Shown in pieces: positions 8,184-64,000 of a stretch of 64,000 nt of DNA. This DNA is from Streptosporangium lutulentum (GTDB taxonomy: Bacteria > Actinomycetota > Actinomycetes > Streptosporangiales > Streptosporangiaceae), in NCBI RefSeq assembly GCF_030811455.1, contig NZ_JAUSQU010000001.1:1984001-2048000 (forward strand). The letters run 5' to 3'. Under the pieces are notes generated by a model. The model was not told where the DNA came from. It saw nothing but the letters and a program-made list of their open reading frames with translations, and did not search any database. A program made the translations under genes and the position numbers. Position 1 is the stretch's first letter. Each line of letters opens with the position of its first letter.

Positions 8184-9179
8184 TCAGGGGCCGACGAGGG
8201 CCAGCAGCTCCGAGGCCGTCATGCTTCCCGGCGCTCGAAGCTCGCGTGCGAACTCGTTCGCCAGCCGTTGCAGAACCTCGTTGACCGGTGTGGAGACCCC
8301 GTGCGTGCGCCCCAGGAGGGTGATCTCGCCGTTGAGGTAGTCGGACTCGATGGACCCGGAACCCCGGGCCAGGCTCTGCCAGGACGAGCCGCCGCCGCGT
8401 CTCTCGCCCTCGACGCGCCTCAGCCGCACCCGATCGCCCCGCACCTCCGCCTGCTCCGCCACGCCGGCGTGGTCGATCCCCGCCGCCGCGAGTACGGCCT
8501 CTCCCTCGGCCATGGCCCGCCGGCTCAGTTCGAGCGCCTCGTCCCCGGTGATCGGCCCGCAGATCGCCTCCAGGGCGTTGCCGAGGTTGGACAGCAGCTT
8601 GGCGTACTTCCAGCGCATGACGTCGGGGGAGATCGGCGCGAGGAAGGCTGACTTCTCCAGGTCCGCGGCGATCCTCTCCAGGGTCTCCCCGGCGCCCGAG
8701 GGGTAGCGGCCGAGGTGCAGGATCCCGCTCAGGGGCGAGCCCGAGGCCGCGATCTTCCCCGGTTCGAGGTGCGACGCGGGAAGCCAGACGCACATGCCGT
8801 ACACATGGCGGAAGCGGCGCAGGGCCAGCCGCTCGTTCTCCACCCCGTTCTGCGCGCAGACCAGCGGCAGCAGGTCGGCCGCCGTGCCTCCGCCGGCCAC
8901 CGGCCGCCCGGCCCAGGCGTCCAGCAGCGCGACGCTGTGCTGGGTCTTCACCGCGAGGACGAGGACGTCGCCGGGCTGGAGTTCGAGCGCCTCGGGCCGA
9001 TCGACCGTGGGAATCGGCAGGGTGAGCACCTCGTCGGGCGTCGCGAGGTGGAGCCCGCCCTCGCGCAGCGCCTCGTAGTGCGGGCCGCGGGCCACGAGGA
9101 CGACCTCGTGGCCCGCGGCGAACAGCCGCCCGCCGATCGTTCCGCCGACCGCCCCTGCACCAATGATGATGTATCGCAT
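8184..9179 (-). CDS. Ketopantoate reductase family protein (PanE/ApbA)
   Basis: A 331-aa protein from ATG 9179 (GAAGG eight bases upstream). The N-terminal Rossmann fold has IIGAGAVGGTIGG (residues 4-16); LAVKTQHS and LVCAQNGVENE match the NADPH- and substrate-loop motifs; the C-terminal half holds MRWKYAKLLSNLGNALEAICG with the catalytic-lysine region and an all-helical domain ending in a NGEITLLGRTHGVSTPVNE block. The family reduces 2-dehydropantoate to pantoate for coenzyme A synthesis. Many actinomycetes have several paralogues, so this may act on another 2-keto acid. It is convergent with the AlkZ-like gene. Confidence 0.87.
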   Translation of the reverse strand: MRYIIIGAGAVGGTIGGRLFAAGHEVVLVARGPHYEALREGGLHLATPDEVLTLPIPTVDRPEALELQPGDVLVLAVKTQHSVALLDAWAGRPVAGGGTAADLLPLVCAQNGVENERLALRRFRHVYGMCVWLPASHLEPGKIAASGSPLSGILHLGRYPSGAGETLERIAADLEKSAFLAPISPDVMRWKYAKLLSNLGNALEAICGPITGDEALELSRRAMAEGEAVLAAAGIDHAGVAEQAEVRGDRVRLRRVEGERRGGGSSWQSLARGSGSIESDYLNGEITLLGRTHGVSTPVNEVLQRLANEFARELRAPGSMTASELLALVGP

Positions 9180-9230
9180 TATCAGACCTTCGCATGGAGG
9201 TCTGCGAGGTCCAAACCGTCGTCCCACGGC

Positions 9231-9328
9231 CGGTGGGGCGGGTCCGGCTCCCGGCTGCCCGGAACCGCGCCCCGCCACCGGTGGAGCGGGTCCTCACAAC
9301 CCCGCCTCGCAGCCTATGGAGCGGATCC
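9231..9328. repeat. Three degenerate copies of a 15-bp motif
   Basis: The words CGGTGGGGCGGGTCC (9231-9245), CGGTGGAGCGGGTCC (9279-9293) and CTATGGAGCGGATCC (9314-9328) lie in the non-coding stretch between the PanE-like and LysE genes. Spacing is uneven (48 and 35 bases), so this is a loose repeat with no evident function. Confidence 0.4.
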
Positions 9329-9436
9329 GGATTCCCCGGCCGCCGTCGGAGCCCGCTCGGGGGCCGACACCCTTTCAAGGCCATTAACGGGAATTGGCCG
9401 TTTTCCTGATAGGGGGAGGGGCCGGATGATTCGACA

Positions 9437-10081
9437 ATGGTCTCTGTCAACGCTTTCGCCGGCATCGGGGCGGTCGCTCTTGGAATGGTCCTCACCCCCG
9501 GACCCAACATGATCTACCTGGTCTCCCGGTCGGTGACCCAGGGGCGCCGGGCCGGGCTGATCTCGCTGTCGGGTGTCGCCGCGGGGTTCCTGGTCTACCT
9601 GGCGGCCGCGGCCGCCGGCATCGCGACGATCTTCGCCGTGGTGCCCGCCCTCTACACCGCGGTCAAGCTCGCGGGCGCCGGATACCTGCTGTGGCTGGCG
9701 TGGAAGGCGGTACGGCCGGGCGGCGAGCCGGTCTTCGCCCCCACCGCGCTGCCGGTGGATCCGCCGCGGAGGCTGTTCTCCATGGGGCTCCTCACCAACC
9801 TCCTCAACCCCAAGATCGCCATTCTGTACGTGTCGCTGCTTCCCCAGTTCGTCGATCCGGCGCTCGGCCACGTCGCCGAGCAGAGCCTTCTCCTCGGCCT
9901 CACCCAGATCGCCGTCGCCCTGTCGGTCAACGCCATGATCGTGCTGACCGCCGGGGCGGTCGCGGCGTTCATGGGCCGCAGGCCGATGTGGATGCGCGTT
10001 CAGCGCTACCTGATGGGCGCCGTGCTGGCGGGGCTCGCCCTCCGCATCGCCACCGACCGGTCGAGCGCCGTGGCGCCGTAG
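9437..10081 (+). CDS. LysE/RhtB family amino-acid exporter
   Basis: A 214-aa membrane protein with about six hydrophobic segments. The family signature GMVLTPGPNMIYLVSRS sits at the end of the first segment, and a second conserved block FSMGLLTNLLNPKIAILYVSLLPQF lies mid-protein. LysE/RhtB proteins export lysine, homoserine, threonine or similar compounds using the proton-motive force. A gap of about 15 bases separates the start from the best Shine-Dalgarno (GGGAGGGG), longer than usual. No regulator is adjacent. Confidence 0.9.
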   Translation: MVSVNAFAGIGAVALGMVLTPGPNMIYLVSRSVTQGRRAGLISLSGVAAGFLVYLAAAAAGIATIFAVVPALYTAVKLAGAGYLLWLAWKAVRPGGEPVFAPTALPVDPPRRLFSMGLLTNLLNPKIAILYVSLLPQFVDPALGHVAEQSLLLGLTQIAVALSVNAMIVLTAGAVAAFMGRRPMWMRVQRYLMGAVLAGLALRIATDRSSAVAP

Positions 10082-10275
10082 CCGGCCTTCCGGGAGCCCG
10101 CGCACGCCGCCGGGCCCGGGGCCGTCCAACCCCTCTCGCCGGGGCCGATGCCCCACGTGCCGAAGGAGGTGGTCAGGACACGTGTGAGCAACCCCCCCGG
10201 GCACCTCCCGAACTGTCGCAGCCGCCCGCTAGTGTCCTGCGATGAGGTGCTGCACATGATTCCGGGGAGCATACG

Positions 10276-12510
10276 GTGACCGTGCCCGCGAAGCCGTACC
10301 CGGCGGACGTGGAGGGCTCCGTCGAGCAACTGGTGTACGTCCGCGACGACGAGTACACGATCGCGCGGATGAGCGCCGAGGGCCTGCCCTCCTTCGTCGC
10401 CGCCGGCCGGGCGCTGGCCGGGGTGCAGCCCGGGGAGACGCTGCGACTGGCGGGGGAGTGGGAGGAGCACCCGCGCCACGGCAGCCGCCTGGTGGTCGAG
10501 CGGTGCGAGCGGGTGGTCCCCTCCACCGTGCGCGCCATCACGCTCTACCTCGGCTCGGGCCTGATCCGCGGGATCGGGCCGAGGCTCGCCCACGCCATCG
10601 TCAGCCACCTGGGGGAGCGGACGCTCACGGTCATCGACACCGAGCCGGAGCGACTGCGGGAAGTCCTCAACATCGGCGCCGTGCGGCAGGAACAGATCGT
10701 CCAGGCGTGGGCGGAGCAGAAGGAGGTCGCCGCGCTGATGGTCGTCCTCCAGGGCTTCGGGATCAGCCCGCTGCTCGCGGCCAAGGTCTACCAGGTGTAC
10801 GGCAACGACTCGCGAGAGGTCCTCACCGGCGACCCGTACCGGCTGATCGGCCAGGTCAGGGGGATCGCCTTCCACACCGCCGACCGGATCGCGCTGCGAT
10901 CGGGGGTGCCGGAGAACAGCCCGCAACGGATCAAGGCGGCGATCGTCGACAGGCTGGAGACGGCGTCCGCCCGTGACGGGCACTGCTTCCTGCCCCTGCG
11001 CGCCCTCCTCGTCGCGGTGGCGAGCCTGGTGGAGCAGGAGGAGGCGCTGATCCGCCGGGCGGTCGACGCGTTGATCGCCGACCACCGGATCGTCGTCGAG
11101 GCGTCGCCGGCGGGCTCCGGTCAGGTGGTGTACTCCAAGGAGCAGCACAGCCGCGAGGTCACGCTGGCGACGCACCTGGACAGGCTCTGGCGGGCCCGTT
11201 CGACGCTTCCGCTGCGCGCGTTCGCCGACGACGAGGGGCTGCACGAAGACCAGCGGATGGCCGTGAACCTGGCGCTGACCAGCACCGTGTCCATCCTGAC
11301 CGGCGGCCCCGGTTGCGGCAAGAGCCACACGGTGAAGGTGATCGCGGCGACCGTTCGGGCGATGGGCGGCACGGTGACCCTGGCCGCGCCGACGGGCAAG
11401 GCGGCCAAGCGCCTGTCGGAGCTCACCGGTCTGCCCGCGATGACCGTGCACCGGATGCTCGCCCCGCGGCCCGAGCTGGAGGGCACGCTGTTCCAGCAGT
11501 CTCCCGCGCAGGCGGATCTGATCGTGGTGGACGAGACGTCGATGCTGGACCTGCAGCTGGCCACCCGGCTGACGGCCGCGATCCCGGCGGGCAGCCACCT
11601 GCTGCTGGTCGGAGACAGCGACCAGCTCCCCAGCATCGGGCCCGGCAGCGTGCTGGCCGACCTGCTGCTGGTGGAGGAGATCCCGCGGGTCCGGCTGACC
11701 CACGTCTTCCGGCAGGCGCAGGACAGCGGGATCGTCCAGGCCGCCCACCGGATCCGGGCGGGTGAGCTGCCTGCGCTGCCCGGCAGGGGCGGTTTCTGGT
11801 TCGAGGAGCTCGACGATCCTGACCAGGTGGCCGAGCGGGTGGTCCACCTGGCGACGGAGGCGATCCCCCGCAAGCAGAACATCGGCAAGGACCAGGTCCA
11901 GGTGCTGAGCCCGATGCGCAAGGGGGCGACGGGCACGGCGGAGCTCGGCCGCAGGTTGCAGGAGCGGCTGAACCCCCCGCGTGAGGGAGCGGCCGAACAC
12001 TGGTCGGGCCCCGCGGTCTTCAGGGTCGGAGACCGCGTCATGCCGATCCGCAACAACTACGACAAGGGTGTGTTCAACGGGCAGACCGCCACGGTCACGG
12101 CGCTGAGCCCGCAGGAGCGGCTGATGGAGATCCGCACCGACGACGGGGTGAGCGTGGAATACACCTTCGGCGAGCTGGACGAGCTGACCCACGCCTACGC
12201 GATCAGCGTGCACCGCTCCCAGGGCAGCGAGTACCCGTTCGTGGTGGCGCCGATCGTGGCCGAGGCCGGAGGCGTGATGTTGCGCCGCAGGCTGCTGTAC
12301 ACCCTGGTCACCAGAGCGAAGGCGTGGGTGGTCCTCGTCGGCCAGCGCGAGGCGCTGGAAATGGCGGTGAACCAGCTCGGTTACCGGAGGAACACCGGCC
12401 TGGCCCCGAGGCTGGCCCTGAGCCTGGGAACCGTGCCGCGCACAGCGCGCGCGACGGCCGAGCCGGGCTCGGGGCCGGTCGTGAGCGAGAGCGGCCGATC
12501 TCCCGTCTGA
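10276..12510 (+). CDS. recD2: ATP-dependent RecD-like DNA helicase (RecD2 type)
   Basis: A 744-aa superfamily 1B helicase starting GTG 10276 behind GGGGAG. The N-terminal part (1-300) has an OB-like region and helix-hairpin-helix stretches (LIRGIGPRLAHAIVSHLGE; VLQGFGISPLLAAKVYQ). The motor follows: Walker A GGPGCGKSHT at about 342-351, Walker B VVDETSMLD at about 417-425, GDSDQLPSIGPG, and at the C-terminus the UvrD-like HRSQGSEYP (about 646-654) and YTLVTRAK. RecD2 enzymes unwind DNA 5' to 3' and act in repair without RecBC. It lies alone between unrelated genes. Confidence 0.95.
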   Translation: MTVPAKPYPADVEGSVEQLVYVRDDEYTIARMSAEGLPSFVAAGRALAGVQPGETLRLAGEWEEHPRHGSRLVVERCERVVPSTVRAITLYLGSGLIRGIGPRLAHAIVSHLGERTLTVIDTEPERLREVLNIGAVRQEQIVQAWAEQKEVAALMVVLQGFGISPLLAAKVYQVYGNDSREVLTGDPYRLIGQVRGIAFHTADRIALRSGVPENSPQRIKAAIVDRLETASARDGHCFLPLRALLVAVASLVEQEEALIRRAVDALIADHRIVVEASPAGSGQVVYSKEQHSREVTLATHLDRLWRARSTLPLRAFADDEGLHEDQRMAVNLALTSTVSILTGGPGCGKSHTVKVIAATVRAMGGTVTLAAPTGKAAKRLSELTGLPAMTVHRMLAPRPELEGTLFQQSPAQADLIVVDETSMLDLQLATRLTAAIPAGSHLLLVGDSDQLPSIGPGSVLADLLLVEEIPRVRLTHVFRQAQDSGIVQAAHRIRAGELPALPGRGGFWFEELDDPDQVAERVVHLATEAIPRKQNIGKDQVQVLSPMRKGATGTAELGRRLQERLNPPREGAAEHWSGPAVFRVGDRVMPIRNNYDKGVFNGQTATVTALSPQERLMEIRTDDGVSVEYTFGELDELTHAYAISVHRSQGSEYPFVVAPIVAEAGGVMLRRRLLYTLVTRAKAWVVLVGQREALEMAVNQLGYRRNTGLAPRLALSLGTVPRTARATAEPGSGPVVSESGRSPV

Positions 12511-58531: not shown

Positions 58532-58855
58532 AAGGTCTGGGCCCTCACAGAGAACGGATGGATCGAAACATCGGACCGTTCCACTCCGGCAGGCTTACCG
58601 GTCAAGACCTAGACGCCTTGCTCGTCGTGCTCTCTCGTTGGTCCGACCGATAACACTCGGAAAGTAGGTATTTTTTTGCGAAAAGAAGTAGAAACATTGC
58701 GGACATTCAGGCGTCATTCTATGGTGTGCACAACGCTGTCCTGCCGATTTTCGGCTGACGGCGGCGATCTTCCCGCCCCCCACCCTGCCGGATCGCGGTG
58801 ACCGTAAGCCCCGACGACCGCGGTGATCCGGCCCTGCGTGACGAAGGGTCAGCCG
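58532..58855. other. Intergenic region upstream of GH99
   Basis: 324 bases without a gene. An AT-rich part at 58640-58710 (with a T7 run) presumably contains the GH99 promoter. No TGTTAnCG-type LacI site is seen here, so GH99 is not evidently part of the arabinose regulon. Confidence 0.4.
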
Positions 58856-60700
58856 ATGAAGACATCCGATCAATCAGTCGGTCTTCTGCCATCCGCCAGA
58901 CGCCGCAAACCCGTCATCCTCATGGTCCTCCTCCTCGTGCTGTGCTGGACGGGAGTGCAGGCGGCGCCGACGGCGCGCGGGGCGGCGGTTCCCGAGCTGT
59001 CCACCAACGTCCATCTGTTCTACTACCCCTGGTACGGCAATCCCCAGGTCGGCGGTGAATGGCGGCACTGGCAGCAGGGCGGTCGCACCCCGCCGAACGA
59101 CATCGGCGCGGATCTGTATCCCAGCCTCGGCCCCTATGACTCCGGCGACCACGCGGGCGCCGTCACCAAGCACATGCAGTGGATCAAGCAGGCCGGAGTC
59201 GGCGTCCTGGTCTACAGCTGGTGGGGTCAGGGAAGCTACGAGGACAACCTGGCCGCGGGCGTGATGAACATCGCCGCGCAGCACGGCATCAAGGTGGCCT
59301 GGCACATCGAGCCGTACGGCGGACGCTCGGCGGCCTCGGTCGTCGACGACATCCGGTACATCAACAACCGTTACGGCGGCAGCCCGGCCTTCTACCGCGA
59401 CGCCGAGCACGGCAACCGCGCGGCCTTCTACGTGTTCGAGAGCCTGAAGATCACCGACTGGGCCGCGCTCGACCAGGTGACCCAGAACAACATCGTGCTC
59501 GCCCAGACCACCGACACCTCGAAGATCGCCCACTTCTCCGGTCTGTACACCTACGACGGGATCGCCGGTGCCACCGCGCCCGGCTGGGCGAACGCGGGTG
59601 CCTACGCCAAGCAGAACGGCCTGATCTGGGCGCCCTCGGTCGCGCCCGGCTACATCGACGACCGCGCCGTCCCCGGCAACACCTCGCCGACGCTCGGCCG
59701 CGCGAACGGCGCCACCTACGACCTGGAGTGGGCCAACGCCCTCGACCCCGCCAAGGGCGGCCTGCCGTCGTGGGTCTCGATCACCTCGTTCAACGAGTGG
59801 CACGAGGGCAGCTCGATCGAGCCCGCCCACGCCAACCCGCCCGCCGGATTCGGATACCAGACGTTCGAAGGCGCGTACGGCAAGACCGGGGCCGCCGCGG
59901 AGACCGCCTACCTGGACCGGACGAAGTACTGGGCGACGGAGTTCGAGACCCGCAGGGGCACCGGGGGCCAGCAGGACACCCAGCCGCCGTCGGCGCCGGG
60001 TAACGCGCGCTCCACCGCGACCACCGAGACCAGCGTCGCGCTGGCCTGGAACGCCTCCACCGACAACGTCGGCGTGAGCGGCTACGACGTCTACCGCGAG
60101 GCGGGCGCCACCGGCGTCAAGGTGGGCAGCGCGTCCGGGACGTCGTTCACCGTCACGGGTCTCAGCCCGTCGACGTCCTACCGGTTCTACGTGGTGGCCA
60201 GGGACGCCGCGCAGAACACCTCGCCGCCCTCCGCCACGGTGACCGCGGTGACCAAGACCCCCACCGGGTGCTCGCCGGGAACCGGCGACCTGGCCCGAGG
60301 CAAGTCGATCACGGCCAGTGGCGCCACGCAGAACTACGTCCCGGCCAACGCCGTCGACGGGAACGCGTCGACCTACTGGGAGAGCGCCAACCACGCCTTC
60401 CCCCAGTCGATCACGGTCGACCTCTGCGCGCAGGCCGGGGTCAAGCGGGTGGTGCTGAAGCTGCCGCCGATCTCAAGCTGGAACACGCGCACCCAGACCC
60501 TGTCGGTGCTGGGCTCCGTCAACGGCATCGATTTCGGCACCCTGGTCGCGTCGAAGGGCTACGTCTTCGACCCGGGCACCGGCAACACCGTCACCATCGC
60601 CGTGCCGTCGACGACCCAGAGATACCTGCGGCTGAACATCACCGGTAACACCGGCTGGCCCGCCGGGCAGCTCTCCTCGTTCGAGGTCTACTCCTCCTAG
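58856..60700 (+). CDS. Secreted GH99 endo-alpha-mannosidase-like enzyme with FN3 and F5/8 type C domains
   Basis: A 614-aa exported enzyme from ATG 58856 (AAGGG eight bases upstream). The signal/anchor segment is at about 20-40. The GH99 barrel (about 48-375) shows HLFYYPWYGNP, WHIEPYGGR with Glu152, and TSFNEWHEGSSIEP where Glu314 and Glu317 have the spacing of the family's catalytic pair. A fibronectin type III domain (about 382-465) and a discoidin-like carbohydrate-binding domain (about 470-614) follow. GH99 cuts inside alpha-mannans or glucosylated mannosides. Single gene, followed by a hairpin. Confidence 0.9.
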   Translation: MKTSDQSVGLLPSARRRKPVILMVLLLVLCWTGVQAAPTARGAAVPELSTNVHLFYYPWYGNPQVGGEWRHWQQGGRTPPNDIGADLYPSLGPYDSGDHAGAVTKHMQWIKQAGVGVLVYSWWGQGSYEDNLAAGVMNIAAQHGIKVAWHIEPYGGRSAASVVDDIRYINNRYGGSPAFYRDAEHGNRAAFYVFESLKITDWAALDQVTQNNIVLAQTTDTSKIAHFSGLYTYDGIAGATAPGWANAGAYAKQNGLIWAPSVAPGYIDDRAVPGNTSPTLGRANGATYDLEWANALDPAKGGLPSWVSITSFNEWHEGSSIEPAHANPPAGFGYQTFEGAYGKTGAAAETAYLDRTKYWATEFETRRGTGGQQDTQPPSAPGNARSTATTETSVALAWNASTDNVGVSGYDVYREAGATGVKVGSASGTSFTVTGLSPSTSYRFYVVARDAAQNTSPPSATVTAVTKTPTGCSPGTGDLARGKSITASGATQNYVPANAVDGNASTYWESANHAFPQSITVDLCAQAGVKRVVLKLPPISSWNTRTQTLSVLGSVNGIDFGTLVASKGYVFDPGTGNTVTIAVPSTTQRYLRLNITGNTGWPAGQLSSFEVYSS

Positions 60701-60868: not shown

Positions 60869-60900
60869 TGTCACTACAGTGACTCGATGTCATTACAAGT
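60869..60900 (+). promoter_or_regulatory. Direct repeats and palindrome upstream of the graspetide precursor
   Basis: TGTCACTACAGT (60869-60880) and TGTCATTACAAGT (60888-60900) start 19 bases apart. The first also forms the palindrome GTCACT-AC-AGTGAC. Ten bases further on, TTGGT-TG-ACCAA (60900-60911 region) is another palindrome. They lie directly in front of the precursor start at 60927 and look like regulator sites. Confidence 0.55.
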
Positions 60901-60926
60901 TGGTTGACCAACCGGAGGCCAAAGCC

Positions 60927-61139
60927 GTGGCAGACCCGACGCACTTCATCGTGGATCTTCCTGACAGTTTGGCGGGTGGCGCCCGCCAGGCGGGAGGATT
61001 CGGCATGACGCCGAAGCTTGATGACGGCCCGACCACGTATATGACCGGTGAGGAAGGTGGGGAGTACACCACCTACATGACCGGAGAAGAAGGCGGAGAC
61101 TACACCACGTACGCGATCGGAGAGGAAGGCGGCTGGTAG
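60927..61139 (+). CDS. Graspetide (omega-ester peptide) precursor with three TTYxxGEEGG repeats
   Basis: A 70-aa precursor. GTG 60927 is chosen because GGAGG lies nine bases upstream; an open frame back to ATG 60858 has no ribosome site. Residues 1-35 are a leader (MADPTHFIVDLPDSLAGG and a Gly/Ala-rich part). The core has three units: TTYMTGEEGGEY, TTYMTGEEGGDY and TTYAIGEEGGW. Each fits TTxxxxEE, the motif in which plesiocin-type (group 2) graspetides form two side-chain esters between Thr and Glu. The ATP-grasp ligase gene follows after 45 bases. No transporter or protease is in the immediate unit. Confidence 0.88.
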   Translation: MADPTHFIVDLPDSLAGGARQAGGFGMTPKLDDGPTTYMTGEEGGEYTTYMTGEEGGDYTTYAIGEEGGW

Positions 61140-61184
61140 GGCGAGGGCGGAGACGGTGACGACGAAGAACAGGCGCTTCGAGGC

Positions 61185-62147
61185 ATGACGCGCTGGGGGA
61201 TCATCGGCCCGCCGGGCGACGAGCAGGTGGCCAGGGTGGCGAGTTGCCTGCGAGAGCGCCGGGCGGAGCCGGTCATCCTCGATCTTTCGAGGTTTCCGGC
61301 CGAGACGACGTTCTCGCTGTTGGACGGCCTGCCCATGGCTCCGGGGCTCGGATCCGGCCCGGAAGGGCCCTGGTACGTCCGCTCGTTGCCGTTGCCTCTG
61401 CCCTTCCTTCCCCGTCACGGAGTGGAGGGCACCGCGACGGCGGAGGAGCGGGAGAGCGGGTGGCGTTCGGCCTACGCGAACGGCCGCGAGCTCCGCTCGT
61501 TCGTGTTCAGCTTCGTCTCGGCCCTCGAACGCGCCGGTGCGCTCCTCGTCAACCCTCCGTCGACGTTCGGACAGCACTTCCTGAAACTCGACCAACTCCA
61601 GCGACTGCGGGACGCCGCCGTTCCGGTTCCGCGGACGCTCGCCACCAACGATCCCGTGGCCGTCGCCGACTTCGCCCGGAGCATCGGCGGGCCGATCGTC
61701 TACAAACCCGTCGCGGGAGGAGCCCTGTGCCGCCGCGTGACGGAGGGTGACCTGCTTCCGGAGCGGCTCGGCCTGCTCGCCGGCGCCCCCGTGCTGTTCC
61801 AGGAGGAGGTTTCCGGGCGCAACCTGCGGGTGTACGTCGTCGCGGGCAAGGTGGTCGCCTCGTACGAGATCGTCTCCGACGAGCTCGACTACCGGGGCGC
61901 GGAGACCGCGGTGTTTCCGGCCCCGCCCAGTGAGGAGGAGCGAGACGCGTGCCTCCGGGCGACCGAGGCGTGCGAGATGGTGTTCACCGGCATCGACATC
62001 CGCCGCCGGGACGACGGCACCTTCGCGCTGCTGGAGTGCAACCCCTCACCCATGTTCGCCGCCGTCGAACGAAGAACGGGGGAGTCGGGCGTCACCCGGG
62101 CCCTGGCGGAGCTCCTGCTGGGATCGGCGCCTCGCCCGCCCGGATGA
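61185..62147 (+). CDS. ATP-grasp ligase, graspetide maturase (MvdD/MdnB-like)
   Basis: A 320-aa ATP-grasp protein. N-terminal pre-ATP-grasp part WGIIGPPGDEQVARV; NPPSTFGQHFLKLDQL-type substrate region; the ATP-lysine block GGPIVYKPVAGG; VLFQEEVSGRNLRVYVVAGK; and the metal-binding LLECNPSPMF. This order is that of maturases that join Thr/Ser or Lys to Glu/Asp side chains in a precursor peptide. Placed 45 bases behind a TTxxxxEE precursor, it should form the ester bonds. ATG 61185 has only a weak ribosome site (GAGGC directly before), so it may be coupled to the precursor. Confidence 0.9.
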   Translation: MTRWGIIGPPGDEQVARVASCLRERRAEPVILDLSRFPAETTFSLLDGLPMAPGLGSGPEGPWYVRSLPLPLPFLPRHGVEGTATAEERESGWRSAYANGRELRSFVFSFVSALERAGALLVNPPSTFGQHFLKLDQLQRLRDAAVPVPRTLATNDPVAVADFARSIGGPIVYKPVAGGALCRRVTEGDLLPERLGLLAGAPVLFQEEVSGRNLRVYVVAGKVVASYEIVSDELDYRGAETAVFPAPPSEEERDACLRATEACEMVFTGIDIRRRDDGTFALLECNPSPMFAAVERRTGESGVTRALAELLLGSAPRPPG

Positions 62148-62164
62148 GCGGTGCCCGGGCTTCC

Positions 62165-62212
62165 GGCGCACCGTTCTTACCGGTAGAGGGGGAATGCGCC
62201 GGTAAGAACGGT
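62165..62212 (+). terminator. Overlapping alternative hairpins after the graspetide unit
   Basis: Hairpin A: perfect 14-base arms ACCGTTCTTACCGG (62170-62183) and CCGGTAAGAACGGT (62199-62212). Hairpin B: GGCGCA (62165-62170) with TGCGCC (62195-62200). They share bases at both ends, so only one can form. A is much stronger and is the likely terminator. Confidence 0.75.
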
Positions 62213-62247
62213 CGAAGACCACATTCTGGACCCGGCACCTTTGAGGC

Positions 62248-62712
62248 TCACGTCATCGGAGAGGGTTCGGTGGGGTGGGCGATGATGAGGATCATGGTGT
62301 CGAGGAGACGCTGCCAGTCGCGTTCGGACAGGTCGTCGCGTCCCAGGCCGCGGGCGACGGCGGCCAGTGCGTCGATTAGACGGCTCCGGACATGATGCGG
62401 CTCCTCCCCGAGTGACGTGGCCAGCCTGCCGGCCTCCCGGCGGAAATAGCGGGTCCGGGTGAAGCCGAGGAGCGCGGGTGGTGGAGGCGGTTCCCCGGAA
62501 CCGCTGTCGGGGTCGGCGAGGGTGACGGTCAGGCGGGTGCCGAGCGCTTCGGCGAGCCGGTCGAGGGCGGAGACGGTGGGGTTGCCCCGGCCGTTCTCCA
62601 GATTGGCCACGTACGGCACCGACAGTGCGGCCTCGGCGGCGACGGAGGCGACGGTCCGGCCGAGCGCGGCACGGCGGGAGCGCAGGCGCTGGCCCAGTTC
62701 GGCGTGATCCAT
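62248..62712 (-). CDS. XRE family transcriptional regulator
   Basis: A 154-aa protein with an N-terminal Cro/CI HTH (LGQRLRSRRAALGRTVASVA, then VPYVANLENGRGNPT) and a helical C-terminal part of unknown ligand (YFRREAGRLATSLGEEP). ATG 62712 lies two bases from a set of ATCCTGT/ACAGGAT half-sites that reach to the divergent MFS gene, so it probably regulates both. It could also control the graspetide unit, which converges on it, but that unit has different upstream repeats. Confidence 0.88.
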   Translation of the reverse strand: MDHAELGQRLRSRRAALGRTVASVAAEAALSVPYVANLENGRGNPTVSALDRLAEALGTRLTVTLADPDSGSGEPPPPPALLGFTRTRYFRREAGRLATSLGEEPHHVRSRLIDALAAVARGLGRDDLSERDWQRLLDTMILIIAHPTEPSPMT

Positions 62713-62713
62713 G

Positions 62714-62769
62714 ATCCTATCTTGACAGAATAGTTTGATCCTGTTTCTCTCTTCACAGGATAGTCCTGA
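62714..62769. promoter_or_regulatory. Operator array between XRE and MFS genes
   Basis: Half-sites ATCCTAT (62714-62720), ACAGAAT (62725-62731), ATCCTGT (62738-62744) and ACAGGAT (62755-62761): two inverted pairs, the second perfect. TTGACA at 62723-62728 may serve as a -35 for the rightward MFS gene. CAGGA-TAG-TCCTG at 62757-62769 adds a further palindrome. Confidence 0.7.
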
Positions 62770-62781
62770 AGGGGGGAAGCT

Positions 62782-64000
62782 GTGCTGCGGGCCTTACGAG
62801 TGCGGGACTTTCGACTGCTCTGGGTAGCGCGGGCGGCTGCCGTCTTCAGTGCCAACCTTCTGGTGGTCGCGGTCCCCGCCCATGTTTACGCGGTGACCGG
62901 ATCGATATTCGCGACCGGGCTCACCCTGGCCGCCGAGTATCTTCCGGTTCTGCTGCTGGGGCCGTTCGCCGGGGTGCTGGCCGATCGTTGGGATCGCCGG
63001 CGCCTGATGTTTCTCACCGGCGTCGCTCACGTGGCGGTCATCTCCCTGTTGTTCCTCACCCGCACCCCCGACACGGTCTGGATCGTCTATCTGGCGGTGT
63101 TCGGCGAGGGCATCGTGGGGGTGCTATTCCGTCCGGCGGCCCAAGCGTACACACCTGCCGTCGTGGGCACAGGCCCCTTGCTGACCAGTGCTAACGCCCT
63201 GAACTCCTTCACCTCCGGTGTCATCGGGCTGGGCGCGGCCCCGCTCGGTGGCCTGCTGTTCGCTGTCTTCGGCATCGACGCGGCCATCACCGTCGCCCTC
63301 GTCGGCTACCTGATATCCGCCGTGGCGATCGGGTTCACCCGGCCACATCCTCATCGCCGGGAGCTCTCCCAGCGCGTGCTCGCCGAGTTGAGGGACGGGC
63401 TGCGCCACGTCGGGCGGGCCGCCGCCACCCGGGCCCTGCTGGTCGCCAACGGCGTCTACCTTCTGGCGAACGCGGCGCTCACGGCACTGCTGGTGCCGTT
63501 CGGGGTCTCCTCCCTCGGGGGCAGCACGCAGGTCGGCTGGCTGCTGTCGGCGCTGAGCGCCGGTTTCCTGATCGGCGCCCCGATCAGCGGAAGGATCGTC
63601 GAGCGCCTGCCCGTCCGGACGACGGTCGCCGCCGGCCAGATTCTCGTCGCCGGCGCGTTCTTTCTGATGTTCAACGCCCGGTCCTTGCCCGTGGCGCTGC
63701 TCGCGGCGGTCCTCCTCGGGATTCCCGCGGTCACGGTGATCGTCGCCCTGCAGACCTGGCTGCAGCGGTCCACCCCGGTGGCGCTCCTTGGCCGTGTCGG
63801 CGCGGTGTTCATCACCGCCGAGGCCGCCGCGTCGACGGTCGGCGCGTTGGCCGGCCCCGCCCTGAGCGCGTTCAGCCTGCCCATCGCCCTCAACGTGGCC
63901 TGCGCGGTCGCGGCGGTAGCCGCCGTCCTCACTTTCTGCCTGGTTCCGGGCCCCCTGGCCGAAGGCGCCGATCACCTGCCGGTCGGGGTGCCGCCGCAAC
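62782..64000 (+). CDS. MFS transporter (MFS_3/enterobactin-exporter-like), 3' end outside window
   Basis: Open from GTG 62782 (AAGGGGGGAAG upstream) to the window end, 406 codons seen; usual length is about 400-430, so little is missing. It begins MLRALRVRDFRLLWVARAAA, the start typical of MFS_3, and has GVLADRWDRRRLM (the loop 2-3 MFS motif), AYTPAVVG and many hydrophobic segments. Codon 5 is TTA. Drug or siderophore efflux is the family norm. It diverges from the XRE gene; export of the nearby graspetide is possible but unproven. Confidence 0.9.
   Translation, partial: MLRALRVRDFRLLWVARAAAVFSANLLVVAVPAHVYAVTGSIFATGLTLAAEYLPVLLLGPFAGVLADRWDRRRLMFLTGVAHVAVISLLFLTRTPDTVWIVYLAVFGEGIVGVLFRPAAQAYTPAVVGTGPLLTSANALNSFTSGVIGLGAAPLGGLLFAVFGIDAAITVALVGYLISAVAIGFTRPHPHRRELSQRVLAELRDGLRHVGRAAATRALLVANGVYLLANAALTALLVPFGVSSLGGSTQVGWLLSALSAGFLIGAPISGRIVERLPVRTTVAAGQILVAGAFFLMFNARSLPVALLAAVLLGIPAVTVIVALQTWLQRSTPVALLGRVGAVFITAEAAASTVGALAGPALSAFSLPIALNVACAVAAVAAVLTFCLVPGPLAEGADHLPVGVPPQ

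What the first reader, a model, noticed from the sequence alone, without database searches (positions are those of the whole stretch)
60869..62147. Compact graspetide RiPP locus with a three-repeat TTYxxGEEGG core
The sequence shows a 70-codon precursor with three near-identical units (TTYMTGEEGG twice, TTYAIGEEGG once) and, 45 bases on, an ATP-grasp ligase. TTxxxxEE is the described ester-forming motif of plesiocin-type graspetides, known mainly from myxobacteria. Here it occurs in an actinomycete with Tyr inside each loop and GG linkers, and with no dedicated exporter or protease. Three bicyclic hairpins in series would be predicted. Protease inhibition is the usual activity, but this is inference.
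Basis: partly seen in the sequence, partly recalled or inferred. Interest (0 to 1): 0.93.

Follow-up and report, generated by a model that had tools for sequence, protein, structure and literature searches.

The report
Plesiocin-type graspetide locus in Streptosporangium
Two neighbouring genes in a soil actinomycete appear to make a small ring-locked peptide of the known plesiocin kind, probably a protease inhibitor; it looks like an ordinary if uncommon member of that family with an unusual loop sequence.

Summary
A 70-codon precursor (60927-61139) carries TTYMTGEEGG twice and TTYAIGEEGG once; 45 bases on lies a 320-aa ATP-grasp ligase (61185-62147). A Streptosporangium subroseum locus keeps both genes, with two units.

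Of 41 related loci, 37 have a TT....EE precursor within 2.5 kb of the ligase, across many bacterial phyla and archaea. Tyr or Phe in the loop, GG linkers and a bare gene pair recur there. What stands out is Thr at loop position 5: 3 of 129 units, all in Streptosporangium. PsnB-like ligases were found in 2 of 16 genus genomes and 1 of 394 of the class, the window's own.

Verdict: new member of group 2 (plesiocin) graspetides. Product, cross-links and target are untested.

The parts
60927..61139 (+). Precursor peptide, 70 aa, GTG start
   Evidence: GGAGG upstream; start aligns with the S. subroseum homologue, 52 aa
60942..60971 (+). Leader motif HFIVDLPDSL, proposed ligase recognition site
   Evidence: The pattern [LHM][FY]I.DL.[DEN][ST][LV] is seen in 7 of the 7 precursors listed (window, L006-L011)
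61032..61061 (+). Core unit 1, TTYMTGEEGG
61068..61097 (+). Core unit 2, TTYMTGEEGG
   Evidence: only synonymous differences from unit 1
61104..61133 (+). Core unit 3, TTYAIGEEGG
61185..62147 (+). PsnB-like ATP-grasp ligase, 320 aa
62170..62212 (+). Strong inverted repeat (two 15-base arms) just after the ligase, possible terminator without a T run
   Evidence: 62140-62240 folds at -48.2 kcal/mol, z -3.17; the T-run terminator scan found none

Best explanation
A two-gene biosynthetic locus for a plesiocin-type (group 2) graspetide. Shown: the precursor, its three tandem units, and a ligase of PsnB-like sequence and predicted fold. Inferred: the ligase binds the HFIVDLPDSL leader motif, activates the two Glu side chains of each unit with ATP, and esterifies them to the two N-terminal Thr hydroxyls. 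This gives two nested rings per unit, six esters in all (loss of six waters, about 108 Da). A protease encoded elsewhere then removes the leader. The product would be a three-domain hairpin inhibitor of serine proteases. Position 3 of each unit (Tyr) is the likely specificity residue, which points to a chymotrypsin- or subtilisin-like target.
For: PsnB is the top PDB sequence (E 2.8e-48; next 1.2e-10) and the top fold (7drp, E 1.2e-30, TM 0.83; model pLDDT 88.7). The PsnA2 peptide is the only PDB sequence hit of the precursor up to E 10, weak at E 0.16. Tree: PsnB plus the 42 ligases of the set (window and 41 loci) are split from nine other ATP-grasp proteins of the genus or family, 98/98 support. 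Of 41 related loci, 37 have a TT....EE precursor within 2.5 kb of the ligase start. Ligase dN/dS is 0.28 against S. subroseum. Columns invariant in the 17 ligases aligned include YK...GG, R215, D271 and ECNPSPMF. Position 3 is the variable loop site while positions 4-6 are nearly fixed over 129 units, as expected of a specificity residue. Plesiocin as a hairpin serine-protease inhibitor whose potency rises with the number of units: PMC13097080 (passage seen).
Against: No product or mass data. The ligase is far below the NCBIfam graspetide cut-off (TIGR04187: 72.9 of 350 bits); I did not test whether PsnB itself passes it. Thr at position 5 of units 1 and 2 departs from the L/I/V/M/K of the 126 other-loop units. 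Leader GG is not conserved: AGG here, AEG in S. subroseum, so cleavage by a C39 peptidase is doubtful. PsnB's exact place within the set is unresolved. The role of position 3 in target choice is partly recalled and rests on no paper I read.
Confidence: 0.87

Rival explanations
1. The peptide is cross-linked, but with another pattern: loop Thr5 of TTYMTGEE takes part, or only some esters form, so that units 1-2 differ from unit 3.
For: Thr5 occurs in 3 of 129 units, all in the two Streptosporangium loci. A group 2 peptide, Gra-5, showed only one dehydration in E. coli although two acceptors were conserved (PMC9576775, passages seen).
Against: All five Streptosporangium units keep TT and EE; a Thr5 to Glu7 or Glu8 ring would be very small (inference); unit 3 has the common kind of loop and the same ligase must act on it.
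Confidence: 0.1
2. The ligase is a general amino-acid ligase (RimK/LysX-like) that adds glutamate to the acidic peptide, and the repeats are incidental.
For: Pfam RimK domain (E 4.6e-10); RimK family score E 5.8e-20; RimK structures are lower fold hits.
Against: PsnB (2.8e-48) beats the first RimK entry (1.3e-8) by about 40 orders of magnitude; precursor and ligase lie together in 37 of 41 loci.
Confidence: 0.02
3. The locus is a silent or decaying relic.
For: It is patchy: 2 of 16 genomes of the genus, 1 of 394 sampled from the class, the window's own.
Against: Intact frames in two species; ligase dN/dS 0.28; the core is kept while the leader-core linker diverges.
Confidence: 0.05

Closest known systems
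Plesiocin (PsnA2/PsnB, Plesiocystis pacifica; prototype of graspetide group 2)
   Same: TTxxxxEE units in tandem, one PsnB-like ligase; GG before the first unit is shown in the PsnA2 match, an FI.DL-type leader is recalled
   Different: Ligase about 35% identical in the fold alignment; three units against four (PMC12291112, legend seen); Tyr3 and Thr5 in the loop
S. subroseum two-unit locus (L006/L050)
   Same: Same gene order and flanks, ligase 89% identical
   Different: 52-aa precursor with two units; last unit ends GEEGC
Two-gene loci of Pseudonocardia, Solirubrobacteraceae and Thermomicrobiales (L007-L012)
   Same: Precursor directly upstream of a ligase 59-64% identical; DL-type leader, DLP in 3 of the 5 seen whole
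   Different: Loops T[TS][MTLQHFD][AMT][VLI]GEE, linkers mostly GD or GE; precursors of 88-215 aa in 4 of the 5 measured, 51 aa in L009
Graspimiditide loci (group 13, TIGR04187 plus PIMT)
   Same: ATP-grasp graspetide ligase; one such locus seems to lie elsewhere in this genome
   Different: That locus's ligase (L003) lies on the other side of the 98/98 split; nested single core and methyltransferase (PMC12291112, PMC13097080, passages)

Membership tests
Graspetide group 2 (plesiocin type) | Tandem TTxxxxEE core units | tested here: met
   Three units
Graspetide group 2 (plesiocin type) | Single ligase nearest to PsnB | tested here: met
   Sequence, fold and tree
Graspetide group 2 (plesiocin type) | Conserved leader motif shared with PsnA-type precursors | tested here: inconclusive
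   Motif shared by the window and L006-L011; the PsnA2 match shown covers only VTGGKGGPYTTLAIGEE, the rest of its leader being recalled
Graspetide group 2 (plesiocin type) | Two esters per unit (loss of two waters per unit) | not testable with these tools
   Needs mass spectrometry
Graspetide group 2 (plesiocin type) | Placement in the published similarity network (alignment score 70) | not tested
   Network data not held
Graspetide group 2 (plesiocin type) | Frequent companion, not a defining feature: NHLM-type transporter (PMC13097080, section 7 read) | tested here: not met
   Flanking genes are GH99 and an HTH regulator, then an MFS gene (Pfam run on its S. subroseum homologue); the only C39 peptidase match in the genome lies about 3.2 Mb away
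TIGR04187 GRASP_SAV_5884 maturases | Score at or above the curated 350 bits | tested here: not met
   72.9 bits

The most novel reading that the evidence does not exclude
Streptosporangium has evolved a distinct plesiocin subtype in which two of three units carry a third hydroxyl (TTYMTGEE), giving either a new ester connectivity or a new loop aimed at a protease that ordinary TTxA[VIL]GEE units do not bind, with unit 3 (TTYAIGEE) keeping the old activity: a two-specificity inhibitor.
Probability: 0.12. Interest if true: 0.5.

Novelty: new member of a known kind. Interest (0 to 1): 0.3.

Why it matters
It adds a minimal two-gene graspetide system from an actinomycete, with a natural pair (three-unit and two-unit) and a loop variant that could show how unit number and loop residues set activity. 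The loop survey of 129 units gives a testable prediction that position 3 sets target choice.

Tried and rejected
Empty-site test: GH99 catalytic part and HTH gene both occur in G002 and G004, but on different contigs (G002) or about 210 kb apart (G004), so insertion borders could not be drawn.

Adjacent MFS as dedicated exporter: judged unlikely. The HTH and MFS genes sit together in G002 and G004, which had no match to the ligase profile at 1e-15.

Mobile element origin: no relative in viral contigs (one scan with two short patterns); at E 1e-20 only two haloarchaeal plasmids in 72,556 records. The phage collection was not searched.

T-run terminator and sigma-70 promoter scans found nothing. 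A search with the L010 precursor in the PDB found nothing.

Papers: a search for Streptosporangium with graspetide returned none in the open library. Of the main catalogues, Ramesh 2021 is not held, Lee 2020 was not looked up by id, and supplements are capped at 0, so whether the S. subroseum locus is already listed is unknown.

Limits of scans: the class search scored only five candidates for each genome listed. In the tree, several rows had shortened N-termini from my start choice, for example L022, L026, L030, L035.

Full report
What is there. The precursor runs from GTG 60927 to TAG 61139 (70 aa) and the ligase from ATG 61185 to TGA 62147 (320 aa), with 45 bases between them. The 12-codon repeat holds TTYMTGEEGG, TTYMTGEEGG and TTYAIGEEGG. 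In 100 codon shuffles of the window no open segment had two or more TT....EE matches.

Whose genome. The window lies at C1:1984001-2048000 of a 10.6 Mb genome. G011, labelled same genus, carries the 89% identical ligase on a contig of 105,369 bases, the length of NZ_FZOD01000029.1 of Streptosporangium subroseum, which carries the same match; I take them as the same record.

The ligase. NCBIfam and Pfam give only broad ATP-grasp matches (TIGR04187 72.9 of 350 bits; RimK domain). Against PDB sequences PsnB is first (E 2.8e-48) and the next is 1.2e-10. That these entries are PsnB with its precursor is stated. The predicted structure (pLDDT 88.7) matches PsnB chains at ranks 1 to 15, then MdnC, a Chryseobacterium ligase, PruB, MdnB, LysX/ArgX and RimK. 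Thirty-seven columns are invariant among the 17 ligases aligned (17 of the 42 in hand), including K174, R215, D271, E284 and N286.

Relatives. One scan of genome contigs with six peptide patterns from this ligase gave 41 loci. Within 2.5 kb of 37 of these 41 ligases I found a T[TS]....EE frame, mostly just upstream but beyond the ligase in L042, L044 and L046; L019, L021, L028 and L037 gave none, L019 lying close to a contig end. With the window that is 38 records and 129 units. Positions 1, 2, 7 and 8 are set by the search pattern and say nothing. Position 3: L 45, M 39, Q 19, Y 7, F 6, D 4, H 3, E 2, R 2, T 1, A 1. Position 4: A 118 of 129. Position 5: L, I or V in 124; T in 3; M 1; K 1. Position 6: G 127. 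Some loci are near-duplicates (for example L017/L018, L026/L030, L027/L032), so units are not independent. Thr5 is confined to the window (two units) and S. subroseum (one).

Tree. Of 52 rows (window, L002, L003, L005-L046, PsnB and six genus paralogues), the window pairs with S. subroseum (100/100), then groups with Solirubrobacteraceae (80/25, weak) and Thermomicrobiales (98/91), then Pseudonocardia (100/99). PsnB joins the larger set of 43, and nine other ATP-grasp proteins of the genus or family, which I named as outgroup, stand on the other side of a 98/98 branch. PsnB's place inside is open.

Rarity. Of 149 genomes in the relatives search, three matched at 1e-20: the window's genome, G011, and G080 at 33% identity, which falls with the outside group. 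In the class sample only the window's own genome of 394 matched at 1e-30. With the family profile, 14 of 16 genus genomes had some ATP-grasp match at 1e-15, but only two near 1e-130; the best of the others was 3.6e-29. The genome-contig scan did find four Pseudonocardia loci.

Selection and unit turnover. Against S. subroseum the ligase shows dN 0.055, dS 0.195. The precursor keeps HFIVDLPDSL and the core units, except the last residue of the final unit (GEEGG to GEEGC), while the linker changes and one unit is missing there. Precursor dN/dS is 0.38 on few sites and an uncertain alignment.

Surroundings. Upstream is a GH99 glycosidase with fn3 and F5/8C domains; downstream is an HTH regulator and then an MFS gene, whose S. 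subroseum homologue matches MFS_1. The flanks are shared with S. subroseum. The eight neighbour ORFs tested around L007, L008, L009, L011 and L012 (none from L010) match nuclease/phosphatase, PIN, isochorismatase, enoyl-CoA hydratase and, in the two related Pseudonocardia L011 and L012, glucuronate isomerase; two match nothing. None is a transporter or peptidase by these matches, so the bare gene pair seems usual in this clade. A strong hairpin follows the ligase.

Mechanism and limits. The enzyme class and motif follow from the tests above. Leader binding, ATP activation of Glu, ester formation and nested rings are carried over from plesiocin. Seen for this: passages of PMC12291112 and PMC13097080, section 7 of the latter, passages of PMC9576775, which names plesiocin the prototypical group 2 graspetide, abstract, passages and section 5 of PMC8939145, passages of PMC7823629 and PMC10373908. 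Which Thr joins which Glu, and that the loop residue sets specificity in plesiocin, are recalled, not read. Leader cleavage is unexplained; the genome has one C39 peptidase match, at 5.21 Mb, and GG is not kept in the sister species.

Judgement. A sound new member of a known family, uncommon in its class sample, with a modest loop novelty.

Noticed in passing
L049:8802-11164 (G000:C1, about 7.285 Mb): A second graspetide-like locus in the same genome: an 88-aa possible precursor, an ATP-grasp gene (9072-10037) and a gene read by eye as a PIMT-type methyltransferase (10025-11164), like group 13 graspimiditides; no family search was run on it.
   Followed up: partly
L049:17795-19938: A third ATP-grasp gene with downstream reading frames that look like 2-oxoglutarate oxygenases by eye.
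   Followed up: no
L082:2528-3906 (Halocatena salina plasmid NZ_CP096022.1): A small frame absent from the listed annotation (ends MTEDVHFIEELEERENATPIGVTTMAMGEEVGDLSLPLI) just upstream of an annotated ATP-grasp gene: a likely plesiocin-type precursor on a haloarchaeal plasmid. The second plasmid hit (L083) showed no such frame.
   Followed up: partly
L044:7039-7168, L046:4077-4179: Thermoplasmatota loci with very small one-unit precursor frames (43 and 34 codons stop to stop) and a second ATP-grasp reading frame beside the first.
   Followed up: partly
window 62248-63999: Divergent HTH regulator and MFS transporter pair, found also in two genus members (G002, G004) without a PsnB-like ligase match.
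   Followed up: yes
window 58823-60700: GH99 family glycosidase with fibronectin III and F5/8C domains; in G002 and G004 the match covers only the catalytic part.
   Followed up: no
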